Of a DNA stretch of 64,000 bases, positions 3,779-22,524 are shown piece after piece. The notes below the pieces were generated by a model. That model was not told the origin of the DNA. It ran no database searches and saw nothing but the letters and a program-made list of their open reading frames with translations. Each line of letters starts with the position of its first letter. Position 1 is the stretch's first letter. Made by a program: the position numbers and the translations under genes. Source of the stretch: Haemophilus influenzae (lineage in GTDB: Bacteria; Pseudomonadota; Gammaproteobacteria; Enterobacterales; Pasteurellaceae). The DNA is taken from positions 1,612,001 through 1,676,000 of the forward strand of contig NZ_LS483411.1 in assembly GCF_900475755.1 (NCBI RefSeq), read 5' to 3'.

Positions 3779-5056
3779 TTATGACTTCAATAAGTAAGCC
3801 CGTAGTTGTGCAAAATCATTATCCATTTCATCAGAAAGCAATGGTAGCTGATTATGTTTATCCAGTGCTTCAGGTAATGAAAGCTGAATACCAAGAATAC
3901 GTTCTACGGATTCTTTAAATTTCGCTGGATGTGCTGTACATAGGAAGATTCCTGTTTCACCCGCTTTAAGTTGATCTTTCAGCACTTGGTAAGCTATCGC
4001 ACCGTGAGGTTCACATAAATAACCTTTCGCCTGCATCGCTTTTAAGGTATCTTCTGTTTCACTATCACTTAGCATATCCGAACCTAAATCAGTTAAATTC
4101 CAATCATTTCGTTTAAACAATTCTTCCACTCTCGGCCAGTTATTTGGGCGACTGACATCCATTGCATTAGAAAGGGTTGCCACTGTCGTTTTAGGCTGCC
4201 AATTGCCCGATTTCAAATAACGTGGCACAGTATCATTTGCGTTTGTTGAGGCGATAAAGCGTTTTATCGGCAAGCCTAAGGTTTTTGCAATTAACCCTGC
4301 AGTTAAGTTACCAAAATTACCACTTGGCACAGAAACCACAACATTATCACGTTTTTCTTTTGGTAATTGTGCGACGGCCTCAAAGTAATAACAAACTTGA
4401 GCTAACAAACGGCTAATATTAATAGAATTTGCGGAATTGAGCCCTATAGTTTGGCGTAATTCAACATCATCAAAGGCTTGCTTAACTAAAGCCTGACACG
4501 CATCGAAATCAGCGTTAATAGCAACAGTACGAATATTCCCACCTAAAGTACAGAATAGCTTTTCTTGCAATGGGCTGATTTTGCCTTTTGGATAAAGGAT
4601 AACCACATTAATATTTTCTAATCCATAAAACGCATGTGCTACAGCGGCTCCAGTATCGCCAGACGTTGCCGTTAAAATAGTGATTTTGCCATCACCACGA
4701 ACTGCTGCAAGTGCCTGAGCCATAAAACGCCCACCAAAATCTTTAAATGCTAGCGTTGGGCCATGAAATAATTCAAGTGCATAAATATTATTTTCCACTT
4801 TTTCCAATGGCGCGGTAAAAGTAAACGCATTTTTTACCATTGCATCTAACGTTGCTTGTGGTAACTCGCCATCAATTAATGCACCTAGAATTTTTTGACT
4901 ACGCTCAACAAGAGGTAATTCAAGTAATTCATTAATGTTATTAAGTTGAGGAATAACTTCTGGAAAGAATAAACCTTGATCCCGCCCAAGACCTTGACGA
5001 ACAGCCTGAGAAAAAGTGACTTGTTCTTCTGGGTGTTTGATATTGTATAAATTCAT
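3779..5056 (-). CDS. thrC: Threonine synthase
   Basis: Converts O-phosphohomoserine to threonine with pyridoxal phosphate, the last step of threonine synthesis. The 425-residue protein has the PLP lysine in LAFKDFGGRFM, the TATSGDTGAA motif and the phosphate-binding SVPSGNFGN glycine loop. It is the third gene of thrA-thrB-thrC, 42 bases after thrB, so it is probably co-transcribed and under the attenuator at 8541-8580. Length matches the enterobacterial enzyme. Confidence 0.96.
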   Translation of the reverse strand: MNLYNIKHPEEQVTFSQAVRQGLGRDQGLFFPEVIPQLNNINELLELPLVERSQKILGALIDGELPQATLDAMVKNAFTFTAPLEKVENNIYALELFHGPTLAFKDFGGRFMAQALAAVRGDGKITILTATSGDTGAAVAHAFYGLENINVVILYPKGKISPLQEKLFCTLGGNIRTVAINADFDACQALVKQAFDDVELRQTIGLNSANSINISRLLAQVCYYFEAVAQLPKEKRDNVVVSVPSGNFGNLTAGLIAKTLGLPIKRFIASTNANDTVPRYLKSGNWQPKTTVATLSNAMDVSRPNNWPRVEELFKRNDWNLTDLGSDMLSDSETEDTLKAMQAKGYLCEPHGAIAYQVLKDQLKAGETGIFLCTAHPAKFKESVERILGIQLSLPEALDKHNQLPLLSDEMDNDFAQLRAYLLKS

Positions 5057-13851: not shown

Positions 13852-14602
13852 ATGATTCCCGCAGAACGACAAAAATTATTGCTCAATTTGATTAGCCAGA
13901 AAGGCATTACAAGCATTTCACAGCTTGTTGAATCACTTAATGTTTCACATATGACAATTCGGAGAGATATTCAAAAATTAGAAGATATAGGAAAGGTTAT
14001 TTCAGTATCTGGTGGCGTAAAAATGCAAGAACATCTTTCTTTTGAACCGACTCATCAAGATAAATCCTTACTCTTTTGCGATCAAAAAGAAAAAATTGGT
14101 GAAACTGTGGTGCAACTGATTCCTAAGAATACAACTCTTTATCTTGATGCAGGTACAACAACACTTGAAATTGCCTATCACATCATTGAACGCAATGATT
14201 TATTAGTAATCACGAATGATTTCTCTATTGCTCATTTCTTAATGACTAACGGAAAATGTGAATTAATCCATATCGGAGGAACAGTTAATAAGCAAAATCA
14301 TTCTTCTGTTGGTGAATTAGCTGGACAATTTTTTTTCCATTGATATAGCCTTTGTTTCCACATCATCTTGGACATTAAAAGGATTAACAACACCAGACGA
14401 AAATAAATTACCTGTGAAAAAAGCATTAATTAGTGCCAGCAATCAACAAATTTTAATATCAGATTCATCAAAATATGGGAAAGTGGCGACATTCCATATT
14501 TGTCCACTAACAAATTTTGATCACATAATTTGCGACAAAAATCTTGTTGAATCTGCACAGAATGGCATTAGAGAATTAAATATTAATTTAACTATCGTAT
14601 AA
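13852..14602 (+). pseudogene. DeoR family regulator, frameshifted
   Basis: The first frame (13852-14343) gives a DeoR-type helix-turn-helix (ISQLVESLNVSHMTIRRDIQKLE) and the start of the sugar-phosphate sensor domain (LYLDAGTTTLEIA, VITNDF), then stops after GQFFFH. Removing one T from the eight-T run at 14329-14336 restores GQFFSIDIAFVSTSSWTLK and the rest of the domain through DSSKYGKVATF to 14602. The whole repaired protein would be about 250 aa, normal for the family. It resembles the H. influenzae HI1009 regulator that sits beside the four-carbon acid sugar genes. A sequencing error cannot be excluded. Confidence 0.82.
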
Positions 14603-14691: not shown

Positions 14692-15447
14692 TTATTTTTG
14701 ACTACATACAGCAATAAAATGTAATTTATGTTCAGGATCATTAAAGGTTTTGAACATTCTTTTAAATTGCTCACGATTTTCCGCTTTCATGGCATTACGG
14801 ATGATTTTTAACGTACCGAAAATTCCTTCATCATAAATCATTCCTTTTGGAGAAAGTAATGTCATCTCGCCAGAGAAAGTATCTACATATCTAAAGCCAC
14901 TTTCTTGGAATATGCCTTTCCAGCCATCTTTCGTTAATGGCGTGACAGTCACGTTAATCGCTTTTCGCATATTTTCTAGAATAGTTTGATGATCATTCCC
15001 CACCAGCATAACATCGTGAGTAAGCAATAAACCATTTGGTTTTAACACTCGAAAATATTCTGCAATGGCTTTTTTCTTCGCTTCCACGGGTAACATCGTG
15101 AGCATCGCTTCATTGATGACAATATCAAAACTTTCATCCTCAAAAGGCAACTTCATCGCATTCGATCGCTGCACATGAATTTTTTCTTGCAAGCCATTTG
15201 CTTCGATATTTGCTTGTGCTTTTGCTAACGCATGTTCGTCTAAATCAACACCTTCAATATGGCAACCAAATTGCTTCGCCAATCCAATGGCTGTCGTCCC
15301 CATATTACAAGCAACCTCTAACACTTTTTTATCTTGACTAAAATCGCCATTGGCAATTAACCAATCTGTTGCTTTTTTACCGCCTGGACGCAAACGAGTT
15401 TTACCTAAACGTGCAAGAAAATTATGCCCAACTTCATCTTTTGCCAT
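14692..15447 (-). CDS. Class I SAM-dependent methyltransferase, substrate unknown
   Basis: A soluble 251-residue protein with the Rossmann methyltransferase fold: motif I in VLEVACNMGTTAIGLA near residue 44, the acidic ribose-binding residue in IEGVDLDEHALAKA, and motif IV in FDIVINEAMLTMLP. This is the UbiE/methyltransferase-11 type that acts on small molecules, but no feature reveals the substrate. It stands alone, with an SD (AGGAGATAG) before the ATG. Its H. influenzae relative (HI0095, from memory) is also uncharacterised. Confidence 0.85.
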   Translation of the reverse strand: MAKDEVGHNFLARLGKTRLRPGGKKATDWLIANGDFSQDKKVLEVACNMGTTAIGLAKQFGCHIEGVDLDEHALAKAQANIEANGLQEKIHVQRSNAMKLPFEDESFDIVINEAMLTMLPVEAKKKAIAEYFRVLKPNGLLLTHDVMLVGNDHQTILENMRKAINVTVTPLTKDGWKGIFQESGFRYVDTFSGEMTLLSPKGMIYDEGIFGTLKIIRNAMKAENREQFKRMFKTFNDPEHKLHFIAVCSQK

Positions 15448-15524: not shown

Positions 15525-15552
15525 TAAGGCGGAATAATTGTTCCGCCTTTTT
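15525..15552. terminator. Hairpin terminator after the autotransporter gene
   Basis: AAGGCGGAA pairs with TTCCGCCTT around an ATAATTG loop. The forward side is followed by TTTTTCTC and the minus side by ATTTATTT, just past the stop codon at 15556. Confidence 0.7.
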
Positions 15553-15987
15553 CTCTTATTTCTTCAATGCTTTTTTCAATTCAAGTAATTCTCGACGTAA
15601 CTGTTTCAATTCGCTTTCCATTTCAGCTTGTTTATGCAGTTTTTTGTTGGTTTCTACTTGTTGAGAACGCATCATCACTACTTCTTGTCGCAATTGTAAA
15701 ACTTCCGCAGAATTAACCGCACTTTGTGTTGAAACCGCAGGTTTGGATTTGTTACCAAATTTCCAAGAAACACCTGCGCCAAAGGTTTTTTCCGAACCAG
15801 AAAAACTCCCCGCTACATTAAGCAACACATTTTCAACTGGCTTAAACACCGCACCCATTGCCATCGCCTGCGCATTTTTATAACTTCCAACCCCCAAAGA
15901 CAACGCAAATTTATCATCTTCGCCTAATTGTGCAGGTTTTAATGAAGCCAACGCTGCAGCACTTGTGCCAACGCGGTTAATATGTAA

Positions 15988-16263
15988 ATCTGTTCGATTT
16001 AAACGCGTATTTACGTGAGTGAATTGATTATCAATTTGTCCAAGTTTAGTTTCTGTACCATCTAAACGATTATTAACTTGTGTAAAGTTATTATTAACTT
16101 GAGTAAATTGGTTATCAATTTGACCCAGTTTATTTTCTGTACCATCTAAACGATTATTAACTTGTGTAAAGTTATTATTAACTTGAGTAAATTGGTTATC
16201 TATTTGACCCAGTTTAGTTTCTGTGCCATCTAAACGGTTATTGACTTGAGTGAATTTGTTATC
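15988..16263 (-). repeat. Stalk repeats of the autotransporter (84-bp units)
   Basis: Two near-identical 28-codon units (DNQFTQVNNNFTQVNNRLDG followed by TEnKLGQI), flanked by partial copies, encode the coiled-coil stalk. Unit number could change by slippage or recombination and so change stalk length. Confidence 0.9.
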
Positions 16264-17185
16264 AACTAGAGCAAATTGATTATTCACTTGACCAATTTTA
16301 GTTTCTACCGCATTTAACTGACGAACATTTACTGCATCATAATCTTCTGTGCCATCGGCGACATTAACGATTTGGCAGCGGAAATTAGTTGATGAATCAC
16401 CAACAGAAACACTGTTTTCTCGATCCGCAAAGGACATATAACCTACAGCAACAGAATGTTTGGCAACAGACTTAGCATAAGCTCCTAAAGCTGTTGATTC
16501 TTTAGCATATGCTAAAGAACGATTCCCCACCGCAGTACTGTCTTCGTCTACTGCTGTACTGGAACTCCCCAAAGCCGTTGAATATCTGCCTATTGCTGTA
16601 CTATATGTGCCGTAAGCAGAAGCTGTTAGTGCATGTGAAGATGAATGCATCCCAAAAGCTGTTGCAGCATAGGTTTTTCCATAAATTTGTTCTAATTCTT
16701 CTGGTGTTTTTGAAAGAGTTCTTGTTGGGCTAGTAATTGAATTGGATAGAATGGCAGTACTGCCAGATTGTCTAACATAAGATTTCTTTAAGGCTTCAAG
16801 ATCTATTTTTTACTATTTCCATATTCATTATTATACGCCTCAACTGTTTCAACTTTACTAAGCAGACCAATAGCAATAGAACCGTATCCGCCTAGGGCTT
16901 TGCTCCCATGTCCTAAAGCAATACTATATTCTTCATTCGCTTCAGACCATCGACCCAACGCCATACTTCGTTTTCCTAACGCTTTTGCATGCGTGCCAAC
17001 AATGCCTTCCCCATTAACTCCCGTTTCTGAATATGCTCCTATCGCAGTAGAATCCTTACCTAAAGATTTCGCCCCTTCTCCAATGGCAAGACTCAAATAT
17101 TCGCTAGCCTTAGCACTCGCACCTATGGCAAATGAATTTGAACCGGAAGCATTGGCTTCATTTCCTACGGCTATAGCAAGTTGTT

Positions 17186-17199
17186 TAATGGCTAATGGC
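17186..17199. repeat. Tandem 7-bp duplication that breaks the autotransporter frame
   Basis: TAATGGC occurs twice in a row. Removing one copy joins the upstream frame (TVAVGSESKAI) to the downstream frame (KQLAIAVGNEAN) as one continuous head repeat, so the duplication is probably the causal change. Confidence 0.85.
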
Positions 17200-17414
17200 T
17201 TTGGATTCACTTCCAACAGCAACAGTATCCGGTCCCGAGGCATCAGCGTTCAATCCAAATGCAACAGAACGAACGATTGCTTTTGCTCCAGAACCACAAG
17301 CGATACTATCTCCATCTTTTTTAAATATTGACTGATCAATCGCAAAAAACTGAACAGGATAAAAAGAAGTAGAAAGAAGCAGGCTGATTAAAGAAAGTCG
17401 GGTTAGATTATTTT

Positions 17415-17438
17415 GCTTGCTTGCTTGCTTGCTTGCTT
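17415..17438 (-). repeat. Tetranucleotide phase-variation tract (AAGC)6
   Basis: Six GCTT units (AAGC on the coding strand) start 9 bases after the ATG codon of the autotransporter. With six units the frame meets TAA three codons later; with seven, ten or four it continues into the signal peptide. This is the standard Haemophilus on/off switch. Confidence 0.92.
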
Positions 17439-17477
17439 AATGATTTTCATAATATTTTTCCTTTTGTCAAATAAATG

Positions 17478-17514: not shown

Positions 17515-17546
17515 AAAAAATCTGTGACGTATATCACAGATTTTTA
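17515..17546. promoter_or_regulatory. CRP-like palindrome that can also act as a terminator
   Basis: TGTGA-CGTATA-TCACA matches both CRP half-sites perfectly. It is nested in a longer inverted repeat (AAAAATCTGTGA / TCACAGATTTTT) with T runs on both strands, directly after nagA and 80 bases before the autotransporter start. It may end nagA transcription, bind CRP, or both. Confidence 0.7.
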
Positions 17547-17571: not shown

Positions 17572-18720
17572 CTACTTACTCTCTTTCCACTTTCCATTTA
17601 CTACTGTGCCGATCACTTTATAATCTGGCGTAAACACCGCTAAGTTTGCTATCTTACCTTTTTCTACCGAACCTAAACGATCATCTATACCAATTGCACG
17701 AGCTGGGTAAAGGTTACTCATTCTAATGGCTTCCGCAAGAGGAATTTCAACATATTCTACCGCATTTTTAATGGATTCCATCATTGTGATTGATGCCCCT
17801 GCAATCGTGCCATTCGCATCATAGCAACGCCCATCTTTGATATAAATTGTTTTTCCTACAAAGGTAAAACTTTCTAGTTCTGGCGGTGCACCTGCGGCTG
17901 CAATGGAGTCAGTCACAATACAAAGTTTGTCGCCTTTGATTTTTTTATCAATGCGAACATTGCCGTAATTCACGTGAATACCATCAACAATAATACCTGT
18001 GTAAATATCGCTGTCTAGCACAGCTCCCACGACACCCATTGCACGCCCAGAACTAATTGGCGACATTGCATTATGTAAGTGAGTCGCAAAAGTTGCACCT
18101 TTATGGAATGCGGCTTTAGCCACCTCATAGCTTGCGTTGGAATGCCCTACAGAGACAATAATGCCCGCTTCCACAAAATCGGGCGTATAGTTAATAGTTG
18201 GATTTTCTGCGGCAATGGTAATTTTTGTAATGACATCCGAATTTTCACAGAGAAAATCTTTCATTTCTGGCGTAATTTCACGAATATATTCGGGACGGTG
18301 CACGCCTTTTTTCTCAATGCTAAGATAAGGCCCTTCAATATGTAAACCAAGTGCTTGGTTTTTATGCTTGTTTAAATATTCACGCATAATTTTCACCGCA
18401 CTTTTTATGTTTTCATCTGGTGCCGTAATAAAAGTGGGGAGGAAACTTGTACAACCTGATTTTAAGTTAGTTTCCTGCATAATTTCCAAGGTTTCAACGC
18501 TAGTTTGGTCGTTAAACATCACGCCACCGCAGCCATTTAATTGCAAATCAATAAAACCAGCAGTTAAATTATTACCTTGTAAATCAATGGTTTTGATGTC
18601 CTTTTCTAATTCAGTTTGCGGGATCACTGCTTCAATAGTCTCGCCATCAATTACTACCGCATAATCTCGTAGAATTTCGTATTTAGTGTAGATCACACTG
18701 TTGGTTAATGCGTATTTCAT
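17572..18720 (-). CDS. nagA: N-acetylglucosamine-6-phosphate deacetylase
   Basis: Removes the acetyl group from GlcNAc-6-P, giving glucosamine-6-P for NagB. The 382-residue protein has the amidohydrolase metal and substrate motifs GCGGVMFND, LHIEGPYLS, SVGHSNASY, THLHNAMS and IVTDSIAAAG. Start chosen at MKYALTNSVIYTKYE with GGAAGG upstream; family members begin there. Last gene of nanE-nanK-siaR-nanA-nagB-nagA, 53 bases after nagB. Confidence 0.96.
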   Translation of the reverse strand: MKYALTNSVIYTKYEILRDYAVVIDGETIEAVIPQTELEKDIKTIDLQGNNLTAGFIDLQLNGCGGVMFNDQTSVETLEIMQETNLKSGCTSFLPTFITAPDENIKSAVKIMREYLNKHKNQALGLHIEGPYLSIEKKGVHRPEYIREITPEMKDFLCENSDVITKITIAAENPTINYTPDFVEAGIIVSVGHSNASYEVAKAAFHKGATFATHLHNAMSPISSGRAMGVVGAVLDSDIYTGIIVDGIHVNYGNVRIDKKIKGDKLCIVTDSIAAAGAPPELESFTFVGKTIYIKDGRCYDANGTIAGASITMMESIKNAVEYVEIPLAEAIRMSNLYPARAIGIDDRLGSVEKGKIANLAVFTPDYKVIGTVVNGKWKESK

Positions 18721-18772
18721 TCTATACCTTCCAAATGTTTTAAGAAAAACGACTGATTGTAAAAATGATAGG

Positions 18773-19585
18773 TTATTTATCGCTGTAATAAGTCCCAGCA
18801 ACCGCACCTTCTAATTCAGTAAAATATTTCACGGTTTTCACTTTTAACTCTTGTTGAGCAGCTTCATCACAAACGAGCAAGAAATGACGGTGCATTTGTA
18901 ATGCACTGACTGTCCATAAATGGTTAATACTGCCTTCAACGGCAGCTTGCACTGCCAGTGCTTTTTGATGTCCTGTTGCTAAAATCATCACTTCTTCTGC
19001 ATCTAATAATGTGCCAACACCAATGGTTAAAGCATATTTCGGCACTTGAGTAACATCGTTATTAAAGAAGCGTGAATTTGCAATTAATGTATCTTGTGTG
19101 AGTGTTTTAATGCGGGTGCGAGAACTTAATGAAGAGGCAGGTTCATTGAATGCAATATGTCCATCCACACCAACCCCCCCCATAAACAGATGAATTTTGC
19201 CGTAGGATTTAATTTTTTCTTCATAACGACGGCATTCTGCATTATGGTCATCGGTATTGCCGTTAAGAATATTGATATTTTCAGGTAAAATATCGATATG
19301 ATTGAAAAAATTGTTATACATAAAGCTGTGGTAACTTTCAGGGTGTTCCTCTGGTAAACCCACATATTCATCCATATTGAAAGTCACTACGTGTTTGAAA
19401 CTCACTTTGCCTGCTTGATAAAGTCGAATCAGTTCTTGATAAGTTTTTAGTGGTGTACCACCAGTAGGTAACCCCAATACAAAAGGACGCTCGGCGGTAG
19501 GTTTAAAATCATTGATACGATTGATGATATGTTGTGCAGCCCAACAACTGACTTGTTGTTCTGTTTGTAGCGGAATAAAACGCAT
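18773..19585 (-). CDS. nagB: Glucosamine-6-phosphate deaminase
   Basis: Converts glucosamine-6-P to fructose-6-P and ammonia, joining sialic acid breakdown to glycolysis. The 270-residue protein carries the family motifs [27 protein letters not shown] and [15 protein letters not shown]. Glucosamine-6-P, its substrate, is reported to act as co-activator with SiaR in H. influenzae. The 5' end of this gene is partly duplicated 257 bases upstream. Confidence 0.97.
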
Positions 19586-19870: not shown

Positions 19871-20752
19871 TTATGACAAAAATTTCGCTTTCAATTCTTT
19901 TGCTTTTGCAACCTGTTCTTCTGTTGCTTTTGCTGTCATTGGCTCACGGCAATAACCTGCATCCACCCCTTCTAATTTAAGCAATTCTTTGATAGTTAAA
20001 TATAAACCGTTCGCTAAAATGCCTTCGATTAAATCATTGGTTACGTGTTGAATTTCTAATGCTTCAGCTAATTTACCCGCTTTGGTTAATTCAAAAATTT
20101 GACGAGCACGAACGCCGTTTACGTTGAAAGTTGAACCGATAGCACCATCTACGCCTAAAGAGGCAGCAGGTAACATCATTTCATCAAAACCTGCCCAAAT
20201 TAAGTGGTTTGGATAAGCTTTTTTCAAACGTTCTAATAAGTAGAAATCACCTGCTGTGAATTTCACACCCAATACTTTCGGATTTTTGTAAAGCTCGCCA
20301 AATTGTTCAATGCCCATATTCACGCCAGTTAAGAACGGAATAGAGTACACGATCATATTATTGCCCGTTTCTGCAATAATGGTGTCGTAATAATGTTTAA
20401 TTTCAGGGAAACTAAATTTGTAGTAGAACGGAGTAACAGCAGATAAGCAATCATAGCCTAATTCTGTTGCATATTTACCTAATTCAACTGCTTCTTTTAG
20501 GTTTACGCTGCCCACTTGAGCGATTAATGCGATTTGATCTTTTGCTTCATCTTTTGCAATACGGAAGATTTCTTTTTTCTCTTCCGTTGAAAGCATAAAG
20601 TTTTCGCCTGTTGAACCGCCCACATATAAGCCGTCCACTTTCATTTTGTCGATGTTGTGGCGGATGATTTGGCGTAAACCTTTTTCATTAATGGTGCCAT
20701 CTTCATTAAATGACACTAATAATGCACTGAAAATACCTTTTAAATCACGCAT
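19871..20752 (-). CDS. nanA: N-acetylneuraminate lyase
   Basis: Splits sialic acid (Neu5Ac) into N-acetylmannosamine and pyruvate, the first catabolic step. The 293-residue protein is a DHDPS/NAL-type aldolase: [10 protein letters not shown] near residue 47, the tyrosine in [10 protein letters not shown] near 137 and the Schiff-base lysine in [11 protein letters not shown] near 164. Fourth gene of the leftward nan-nag operon, 10 bases after siaR. Confidence 0.97.
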
Positions 20753-20762
20753 AAGTTTTCTC

Positions 20763-21629
20763 CTATTTTATACGTTGTTCAAGAATTACATTGAGAGTTT
20801 TTTGTTTAGTTTGAGCGGCAATTTCTTCTTCGCCCTGCACTAACAAAGCATAAATTAAATCTAATACAAAAAGCTGTGCGATCTTGGTGCCAATAGAATC
20901 TCCTTGTAACTTGCCTTGTTTATTACCATTTACCAAAACATAATCAGCATATTCTGTCACAGGGGAACGCAAACTATGCGTCAATGCCACTGTTGTTGCA
21001 CCATTTTGTTTTGCAATTTTGATGGTATGTGCCGTTTCAGCAGAATAACCAGAATGGCTTAAACCAATTGCCACATCAGAAGATGTAAGTAATGCTGCCT
21101 GCATATACATAAAATGATTATTACCTGAAGCATCCACTTGAAAACCAATACGCATCAGCTTATTTTTAGCATCTTCCGCCGTTACGCCAGATGAACCCAC
21201 ACCAAATAAAAAAATACGACGTGCTTTTTTAAGTACTTTAACGACTTCTTCAAGCTGTTTTAAATCAAGTAAATTAATCGTTTCTTCCATTACATTAGCA
21301 ACTGCGGCTTGCAATTTTTGTGCAATAGTGAGCGAATCATCACTTGGCATAATTTCTGTTTCAAGTACGCTTTCATCTTGATTATCTTTCGTCGCAAGTT
21401 CAATAGAAAGCTCTAATTTAAAATCGCTGAAACCTTTAAAGCCAACGGTTCGACAAAAACGGACAAGCGTAGCCTCTCCCACTTCTAAGTGTTTTGCAAT
21501 TTCAGAAAGGGGACATTGCGATACCAAATCAGGCGAACGCAAAATCGTATCAGCAATTTTTTTCTCTGATTTAGTTAAACTCTGGTAAAGCAAGCCAATT
21601 CTGTTTAACACATTTCCCGATTTAGCCAT
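20763..21629 (-). CDS. siaR: RpiR family repressor of sialic acid genes
   Basis: The regulator of the nan-nag and siaPT operons in H. influenzae (also called nanR). The N-terminal RpiR helix-turn-helix spans about residues 1-77 ([24 protein letters not shown]) and a C-terminal SIS sugar-phosphate domain follows ([34 protein letters not shown]). The start at [11 protein letters not shown] is preceded by AAGGAA and overlaps the end of nanK by 8 bases (ATGGCTAA), so translation is probably coupled. Glucosamine-6-P is the reported effector. Confidence 0.93.
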
Positions 21630-22524
21630 AAATTGTTCCTTCAGGCTTATCCAGTAAAACATCTTTTACCCAATAAGCCGCACCAATTAAACCTGCATCT
21701 TGTCCAAATTTAGCGGATTCAATTTCACAACAATATATCGAAGGAAAATCTTGTAAATATTTTTCGACCAAAGGTAAATATCCCTCAGCTAATCCTACAC
21801 TACCACCAATCGCGATTTTTTGAATATCTAAACTAATCACTAAATCTGCAATTAAATTAGCAATGGCTTTCGCAGAACGCTCGACAAGTGCGGTCGCTTT
21901 TTCATCATTTTTTCTAAAACGCTCAAACACTTCTTTTGGCTCGCACGGATCTTCCCATTGGGAAGAAACTGCTTCAATTGCTCGCCCTGAAGCAATCGCT
22001 TCGACACAACCTCGACGCCCACAACCACAGATCGCACCATTTGGATCAGCTAATGTATGACCAATATGCCCAGCAATACCACGAGAACCTGTCTGCAAAA
22101 TTTGGTTTAGCACAATCCCTCCGCCAACTCCTGTTGAAACGGTAATAAAAACAAAATTTGATACCTGTTCAGAATTTTGCAATTGATATTCCGCATAAGT
22201 CGCAGCTTGTGCATCATTTAATAAACCAATCGGTTTATCCGTATGTTTTGCAATACTAGCTTTAAGTGGAAATTCCGCCAAGCCGCCTAAGTTTTTCGGA
22301 TTTAATGCACTTAAAATGCCATTATTGATGATCCCCGTAGATGCCACCGCTACATAGTCAAACTGCCCTTCATAATCAGCAAGTAATTTGCCTAACGCTT
22401 GGTGCATTCCCTCCACCACATTTTCACGTGGTGTATGAATTTGCTGACGTTGCTCAATTTCGCCATTTTTTACAATCGCCGCAGCAATTTTTGTCCCGCC
22501 AATGTCTAGTGCTAAACAACGCAT
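21622..22524 (-). CDS. nanK: N-acetylmannosamine kinase
   Basis: Phosphorylates ManNAc at the 6 position before epimerisation. The 300-residue ROK family kinase has the ATP loop ALDIGGTKIAAAI at the N-terminus, the VSTGVGGGIVL motif and the zinc site GHTLADPNGAICGCGRRGC. It lies between nanE and siaR in the operon, overlapping the latter by 8 bases. Confidence 0.95.
   Translation of the reverse strand: MRCLALDIGGTKIAAAIVKNGEIEQRQQIHTPRENVVEGMHQALGKLLADYEGQFDYVAVASTGIINNGILSALNPKNLGGLAEFPLKASIAKHTDKPIGLLNDAQAATYAEYQLQNSEQVSNFVFITVSTGVGGGIVLNQILQTGSRGIAGHIGHTLADPNGAICGCGRRGCVEAIASGRAIEAVSSQWEDPCEPKEVFERFRKNDEKATALVERSAKAIANLIADLVISLDIQKIAIGGSVGLAEGYLPLVEKYLQDFPSIYCCEIESAKFGQDAGLIGAAYWVKDVLLDKPEGTIYG

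What the first reader, a model, noticed from the sequence alone, without database searches (positions are those of the whole stretch)
15556..17450. Phase-variable trimeric autotransporter switched off by an AAGC tract
Seen directly: six AAGC units follow ATG-AAA-ATC-ATT, and the frame stops three codons later. With seven units the frame continues through a clear signal peptide into YadA-type head repeats. Translation is therefore predicted to flip on with gain of one unit, the known Haemophilus way of controlling surface proteins. In this isolate the later lesions would still block the product.
Basis: partly seen in the sequence, partly recalled or inferred. Interest (0 to 1): 0.75.

Follow-up and report, generated by a model that had tools for sequence, protein, structure and literature searches.

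The report
Decayed phase-variable trimeric autotransporter, Haemophilus
A Haemophilus surface-adhesin gene of a known on/off-switching kind is out of frame at its short AAGC repeat and also broken in two later places, so here it looks like a dead copy; its relatives carry an unusual helical tail after the membrane anchor.

Summary
On the minus strand, ATG 17450 runs into six AAGC units (17415-17438) and stops at 17405. The signal-peptide frame is different, and no ATG/GTG/TTG start bypasses the tract. Two later frame breaks (about 17.19-17.25 and 16.81 kb) also disrupt the gene. Pieces searched apart show YadA head, stalk and anchor.

It is a decayed allele of a known kind: repeat-switched trimeric autotransporters of Haemophilus (PMC2651432, PMC3309571). 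It lies between nagA and a methyltransferase gene, on that side matching a published H. aegyptius-group locus, probably tahA8. Tracts: 6 units here, 11 in H. haemolyticus M19501, 21 in H. aegyptius NCTC8502. All 13 tracts read are OFF. A switch is supported for the family (switching not measured), not for this copy.

Less expected: 7 of 76 Haemophilus anchors read, all in this family, continue into a 66- or 42-residue tail, 66 beside the methyltransferase; the other 69 end at the barrel. Such tails are described for Veillonella (PMC7549365); in the listings and passages opened I saw none for Haemophilus.

The parts
17459..17463 (-). Shine-Dalgarno-like AAGGA before the ATG
   Evidence: sequence read; AAGGA also stands before the ATG in 12 of the 13 tracts listed
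17448..17450 (-). ATG start codon that feeds the repeat; the two other frames are closed by stops at 17449 and 17439
17415..17438 (-). six AAGC units (phase-variation-type tract)
17403..17405 (-). TAA that ends the ATG frame after 15 codons
17188..17406 (-). open piece in the other frame: signal peptide (LTRLSLISLL...) and start of the head, 73 aa
16803..17243 (-). second open piece, YadA head repeats (PF05658, 79 bits), in a different frame from the pieces on either side
15556..16650 (-). third open piece: last head repeats, stalk (PF05662), anchor (PF03895), tail
16008..16306 (-). 84-bp (28-codon) stalk repeat, 3.6 copies
   Evidence: count of a stalk motif differs between related proteins
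15757..15930 (-). YadA membrane anchor domain
   Evidence: 55 bits, cut-off 22.7
15559..15756 (-). 66-aa tail after the anchor
   Evidence: helix 315-362 in the AlphaFold2 model, pLDDT under 50 for its first six residues, then block means 52-83
15526..15549 (-). terminator-like hairpin after the gene
   Evidence: 3 such sites found in the region, 1.4 expected in shuffles
17572..18807 (-). nagA (upstream neighbour)
14692..15447 (-). SAM-methyltransferase-like gene (downstream neighbour)

Best explanation
This is a decayed, translationally OFF allele of a phase-variable trimeric autotransporter locus between nagA and a methyltransferase gene. In intact members the ATG and the (AAGC)n tract would encode a variable, positively charged KQAS leader ahead of the signal peptide; gain or loss of a unit by slippage moves the signal peptide and head in or out of frame (established mechanism for Haemophilus tetranucleotide tracts, inferred here). 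When in frame, the product would be exported by Sec, trimerise, insert its barrel and display a YadA-type head on a stalk (inferred from domains). In this isolate the tract is short and out of frame, and two later frame breaks have accumulated, so no full product is expected. The most likely history (inference) is a locus that stayed OFF, lost selection and decayed; the site holds a longer tract in H. haemolyticus M19501 and, on the methyltransferase side, in H. aegyptius NCTC8502, and only a 3' remnant in G006.
For: Domains in separate pieces. Tract, frames, no bypass start. Relatives with the tract at the same place after the same or a similar leader. Same nagA-TAA-methyltransferase order in G001 (H. 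haemolyticus M19501) with 11 units; family member beside the methyltransferase in G007 (H. aegyptius NCTC8502) with 21 units; 3' remnant with terminator in G006; in five of ten genomes an empty gap, 132 nt from stop to start. Relatives P0001 and P0002 run unbroken across the 16.81-kb break. C-terminal piece dN/dS 0.19-0.54 against six aligned stretches from five relative loci, so the frame was under constraint in the past. Published kin: YadA-domain loci 20-23 and 25 in the table of PMC2651432; Table 2 of PMC3309571.
Against: No read-level or colony data, so a sequencing error at any break cannot be excluded (one assembly). No ON copy with this exact leader was found: 0 of 13. The order of events (tract loss first or other breaks first) is not shown.
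Confidence: 0.86

Rival explanations
1. A live contingency locus caught in the OFF phase, with the later frame breaks being assembly errors or themselves reversible.
For: Tract is real and its length varies across isolates; one break lies close to a short direct repeat (17186-17200); the C-terminal frame shows past constraint.
Against: Two breaks besides the tract; six units is shorter than nine of the twelve other tracts read; the close relatives P0001, P0002 and P0005 are annotated without a signal peptide, and P0002 also loses its tail, which suggests decay or OFF states are common for this allele type.
Confidence: 0.1
2. The short ATG-tract reading frame is itself the product (a KQAS micro-peptide or leader peptide), and the autotransporter pieces are irrelevant to it.
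For: The 15-codon frame has a ribosome-binding-like site, and its first four codons are the same or nearly so in most relatives.
Against: The frame ends at codons 9 to 52 depending on the tract (13 tracts). A signal peptide follows in all 13, but 12 of them were found by a pattern that demands it, so that part is no independent evidence.
Confidence: 0.02
3. A chance repeat in an ordinary pseudogene, never a switch.
For: All 13 tracts are OFF.
Against: Repeat far beyond chance; the tract-plus-signal pattern occurs in six of ten genomes; published as phase-variation candidates (PMC2651432, PMC3309571).
Confidence: 0.02

Closest known systems
F3043-1499724 YadA-domain locus of Power et al. 2009 (PMC2651432), probably tahA8/tabA8 of Strouts et al. 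2012 (PMC3309571)
   Same: CAAG/GCAA (= AAGC) tract in the 5' coding region of a YadA-domain gene. The H. aegyptius NCTC8502 copy (L010) has a CAAT tract 369 nt from its AAGC tract. Power's table puts CAAG(19) at 1499724 and CAAT at 1500170, which gives the same spacing to within about 1 nt (my arithmetic). tahA8 is listed with GCAA(19).
   Different: In this window nagA lies upstream instead; the tract has 6 units; two additional frame breaks. The link to tahA8 rests on repeat number and size, not on that strain's DNA.
tabA6/tahA6, tahA7 (PMC3309571) and the PittII/F3031/F3043 CAAG YadA locus (PMC2651432)
   Same: GCAA tract in the coding region, trimeric autotransporter.
   Different: Other loci. 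Which of the tailed copies read here corresponds to which of these was not established.
Lav (PMC9022572)
   Same: Autotransporter switched by a GCAA tract in the reading frame; predominantly OFF in isolates (14/16 carriage, 49/50 invasive where present; passages read).
   Different: Described there as a homologue of AutB; not called trimeric in the passages read; switching shown by Western blot there, not here.
Veillonella parvula trimeric autotransporters (PMC7549365)
   Same: Coiled-coil or SLH domain after the YadA anchor.
   Different: Diderm Firmicute; no phase-variation tract mentioned in the passages read; those passages say the anchor is usually at the very end in Proteobacteria.

Membership tests
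Trimeric (type Vc) autotransporter adhesin | YadA anchor PF03895 | tested here: met
   55.2 bits, cut-off 22.7
Trimeric (type Vc) autotransporter adhesin | Passenger of head repeats and coiled stalk | tested here: met
   PF05658 in the second and third pieces, PF05662 in the third; sequence matches to solved YadA (2lme), BpaC (7o23) and EibD (2xqh) chains
Trimeric (type Vc) autotransporter adhesin | Anchor is the last element, ending in an aromatic residue (typical, recalled; not treated as strictly defining) | tested here: not met
   66-aa tail follows; 69 of 76 genus anchors read do end there. Tailed Veillonella proteins are still classed as trimeric autotransporters (PMC7549365)
Trimeric (type Vc) autotransporter adhesin | Forms trimers on the surface | not testable with these tools
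   -
Tetranucleotide phase-variable (contingency) locus | Tract at the 5' end of the coding region, beyond chance | tested here: met
Tetranucleotide phase-variable (contingency) locus | Repeat number differs among isolates at the same locus | tested here: met
   6 (window), 11 (L009, same two flanks), 21 (L010, methyltransferase flank only); published 19 and probably 3 (PMC3309571)
Tetranucleotide phase-variable (contingency) locus | Both ON and OFF states occur | tested here: inconclusive
   0 of 13 ON: 12 out of frame, one (L010) in register but stopped in a variant unit. P0108 reads two repeat units in frame from another leader; the partial record P0026 begins inside the repeat, in frame with the signal peptide
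Tetranucleotide phase-variable (contingency) locus | Reversible switching in culture | not testable with these tools
   -
Working phase-variable gene (this copy) | Single open frame downstream of the tract | tested here: not met
   two further frame changes
tabA8/tahA8 locus | Same flanking genes | tested here: inconclusive
   Methyltransferase side shared with L010, whose tract spacing matches Power's F3043 locus; nagA side differs in L010; F3031/F3047 DNA not available

The most novel reading that the evidence does not exclude
The family combines a phase-switched leader with a periplasmic tail: after the barrel, 42 or 66 residues form a helix that would hang into the periplasm and might tie the adhesin to the cell wall or stabilise the trimer, as suggested for tailed Veillonella autotransporters. 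Tail length goes with the site, and the tail shows signs of constraint: between this copy and H. haemolyticus M19501 it differs at 7 nucleotides in synonymous codons and none in nonsynonymous codons over 66 codons, though other pairs are less clear.
Probability: 0.27. Interest if true: 0.55.

Novelty: new member of a known kind. Interest (0 to 1): 0.36.

Why it matters
It shows what the end of a contingency locus can look like: one chromosomal site seen with long tracts, with a short tract and a broken gene, as a 3' remnant, or without the gene across one genus. It also warns that annotated proteins of this kind often start downstream of the tract: 62 of the 120 relatives listed begin with M and show none of the signal peptides I looked for. 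The tail after the barrel, if it works in the periplasm, would be unusual for Proteobacteria and is easy to test.

Tried and rejected
Bypass start in the signal frame: none found. Chance repeat: rejected. Promoter: 11 promoter-like sites against 6.6 in shuffles, so no promoter is claimed. Tail match in the PDB: only insignificant hits, best E 0.11. Heptad test: the 42-aa form is strongly heptad (1 of 5000 shuffles reach it), the 66-aa form is not significant in a single register (397 of 5000), so the coiled-coil call for the window's own tail rests on homology and on the predicted helix. Search for natural in-frame leaders: residues 1-80 of P0108 gave 5 proteins among 85 candidates, none showing an MKII(KQAS)n leader; a further search could not be made. 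The AlphaFold2 model is a monomer, mean pLDDT 65.6 and pTM 0.29, with an anchor under 50; it was used only for secondary structure, and no fold search was run. The published in-frame label of tahA6 was not checked, because that strain's DNA is not held.

Limits of counts. 0 of 13 has probability 0.005 if each tract had one chance in three, but G006 and G007 share a look-alike two-unit copy, and L010 is OFF through a stop in a variant unit, so this is only suggestive. For the nine tracts of 11 or more units the same sum gives 0.026 (my arithmetic). Of 77 anchors over the cut-off one (L032) was left out of the tail count. Of 156 related proteins 120 were listed, and those came from a capped candidate set. 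Tails were measured by a motif in 108 of the 120: 82 of 42 aa, 18 of 66 aa, 8 of other lengths.

Papers. Passages: PMC2651432 (also section 19), PMC3309571 (also section 12 part 1), PMC9022572, PMC7549365, PMC7247746, PMC7688925, PMC11868660. Others: search listings only. De Bolle 2000 was seen only as a reference title.

Full report
Observation. The region was read base by base. On the minus strand the ATG at 17450 is followed by AAA ATC ATT and six perfect AAGC units (17415-17438), and the frame ends at TAA 17405. The tract is far beyond chance. The stretch that encodes a signal peptide and the first head residues lies in another frame, open between stops at 17439 and 17187. A scan of the three frames for ATG, GTG, TTG and stops shows that only the ATG's own frame (which also holds a GTG at 17537) enters the tract, and that no such start enters the signal frame between the tract and 17300. 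The coordinates in the finding (15556-17450) are right.

Anatomy. The gene lies in three open pieces that use two frames: 17406-17188 (signal, early head), 17243-16803 (head repeats), 16650-15556 (last head repeats, stalk, anchor, tail). Pfam finds YadA head in the second and third pieces, and stalk and anchor in the third. Two natural proteins named H. influenzae, P0001 and P0002, run unbroken across the join near 16.81 kb; neither is annotated with a signal peptide, and P0002 departs from the family after the anchor. The stalk contains an 84-bp repeat, 3.6 copies; a count of a stalk motif gives 4 in this copy and 1 to 4 in eleven related proteins examined.

Whose genome. The window lies in a 1,834,484-base single contig. 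A 2,654-base stretch beside it (19871-22524) is 95-96% identical to G005, G006 and G007 and 87-88% to the six other Haemophilus genomes held. So the strain is close to the H. aegyptius side of the genus; no name was given.

Relatives of the tract. A pattern for tract plus signal-peptide DNA found matches in six of ten Haemophilus genomes; these are twelve distinct tracts, and a thirteenth is in a record labelled Neisseria gonorrhoeae DSM 9188 with another leader (L012). Units: 29, 11, 25, 32, 21, 2, 15, 2, 21, 2, 14, 6 (window) and 14. Twelve are out of frame with the signal peptide; one (L010/L129) is in register but stopped inside a variant unit. Published work on the similar autotransporter Lav reports predominantly OFF isolates (PMC9022572, passages).

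Proteins. Of 156 related proteins 120 were listed. None of the 120 has a KQAS repeat after MKII. Sixty-two begin with M and show none of the signal peptides I looked for; 46 have a leader MEITKQTT (or close to it) with its own signal and no KQAS repeat; 9 show the TRLSLI-type signal; 3 are other. P0108 reads two repeat units in frame from a different leader, and the partial record P0026 begins inside the repeat in frame with the signal peptide, so in-frame forms exist in the wider family. A search with the first 80 residues of P0108 returned five proteins, none showing MKII(KQAS)n. An ON copy with this exact leader was therefore not seen, which counts against calling the switch demonstrated.

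The locus. nagA and the methyltransferase gene are neighbours in seven of ten genomes. In two (G000, G001) the autotransporter lies between them; in five (G002, G003, G004, G008, G009) the gap is 132 nt and empty; in three (G005, G006, G007) the two genes lie apart. In G007 a family member with 21 units, 247 codons open from the signal peptide, sits beside the methyltransferase. In G006 the last codons of the tail and the terminator remain upstream of the methyltransferase. In G005 the protein search with the third piece found nothing. Thus the same site is seen open downstream of the tract (G001: 478 codons), broken, reduced to a remnant, and without the gene.

Link to print. Power et al. 2009 (PMC2651432, passages and section 19) list CAAG YadA-domain loci, among them F3043-1499724 (19 units), with a CAAT methyltransferase locus at 1500170. 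In L010 (H. aegyptius NCTC8502) the AAGC tract (from 4779) and a CAAT tract (4354-4409) are 369 nt apart; 19 units plus that gap reproduces the published 446-base offset to within about 1 nt (my arithmetic). Strouts et al. 2012 (PMC3309571, passages and section 12 part 1) list tahA8 with GCAA(19) and tabA8 with GCAA(3), both as out of frame, and call other family members pseudogenes; their running text, unlike the table, excepts tabA8/tahA8 from the repeat-bearing genes. I infer that this window holds the counterpart of that locus. Phase variation of this family is therefore already proposed; this is a new, decayed member.

Mechanism. Shown: tract, frames, absence of a bypass start, variation of repeat number between isolates, further breaks. 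Established for Haemophilus tetranucleotide tracts and inferred here: slippage changes the number of units and so the reading frame. Inferred: the short tract and extra breaks mean this copy is no longer a working switch; a locus long OFF lost selection. The C-terminal piece has dN/dS 0.19-0.54 against six aligned stretches from five relative loci, so the frame was constrained in the past.

The tail. The third piece does not end at the last barrel strand. In ten Haemophilus genomes 77 anchors pass the Pfam cut-off; I read the end of 76 (L032 was skipped). Sixty-nine stop at a final W or F. Seven carry a tail, and all seven have the AAGC tract: 66 residues in the three copies beside the methyltransferase (window, G001:C16, G007:1943 kb) and 42 in four copies elsewhere (G001:C11, G002, G003:C2, G007:145 kb). 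Two tract-bearing genes (G000:1129 kb, G003:C1:297 kb) have untailed anchors, and tailed proteins without the repeat exist in the database (P0058 and its kind), so leader and anchor can be combined differently. By a motif, 108 of the 120 listed proteins could be measured: 82 have 42 residues after the strand, 18 have 66, 8 other lengths. Constraint on the tail: nucleotide differences in synonymous and nonsynonymous codons are 7 and 0 (window, G001), 6 and 4 (window, G007), 3 and 4 (G001, G007) for the 66-residue form, and between 3-7 and 1-5 in five pairs of the 42-residue form; so the first pair is the clearest, not the rule. The 42-residue form has a clear heptad pattern (1 of 5000 shuffles reach it), the 66-residue form does not in a single register (397 of 5000). 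AlphaFold2 on the third piece with 31 relatives gives one helix over residues 315-362, pLDDT under 50 at its first six residues and 52-83 by block after that, with an uncertain anchor. Veillonella trimeric autotransporters carry SLH or coiled-coil tails, and that paper says the anchor is usually at the very end in Proteobacteria (PMC7549365, passages). I saw no description of such a tail in Haemophilus in the listings of three searches or in the passages of three papers opened from them; most listed papers were not opened and many papers are not in the library.

Verdict. Observation confirmed; interpretation right for the family and only partly for this copy. Interest is moderate to low for the switch, somewhat higher for the tail.

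Noticed in passing
15559-15756 (minus); L165, L171, L166, L164, L172, L173: Helical tail after the YadA anchor, 66 or 42 aa depending on the site, in 7 of 76 Haemophilus anchors read.
   Followed up: partly
G000:C1:804069 (L121), G006:C1:1240059 (L119), G007:C1:1730806 (L125): Three further genes with the same leader and only two AAGC units, all out of frame; L119 and L125 stop 39 codons into the signal frame.
   Followed up: partly
G000:C1:1129114 (L005/L126) and G003:C1:297450 (L118): Same kind of tract and leader joined to autotransporters with a different, untailed anchor: the leader looks like an exchangeable module.
   Followed up: partly
13852-14602 (plus): DeoR-family regulator apparently split into two open pieces in different frames.
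   Followed up: no
L010 5700-5830 and 4354-4409: In H. aegyptius NCTC8502 the adjacent methyltransferase gene is frame-broken near its start, and a CAAT(14) tract lies 369 nt from the AAGC tract on the other side.
   Followed up: partly
L012: A record labelled Neisseria gonorrhoeae DSM 9188 carries a relative with 14 AAGC units, a different leader and a broken frame; proteins named Neisseria also appear among the relatives.
   Followed up: no
G000:C1:1290232 (L096): A 24-unit AAGC tract after another leader (MSYYNSASKQ); possibly the published cryptic yadA-like tract upstream of a tolC-like gene, not checked.
   Followed up: no
16008-16306: In-frame 84-bp stalk repeat; the number of stalk motifs differs between relatives, a possible second source of variation.
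   Followed up: partly
P0011, P0044, P0058 and others (46 of 120 listed): A common related protein begins MEITKQTT or MKIIKQTT, close to the tract leader but without the repeat: possibly a form that lost or never had the switch.
   Followed up: no
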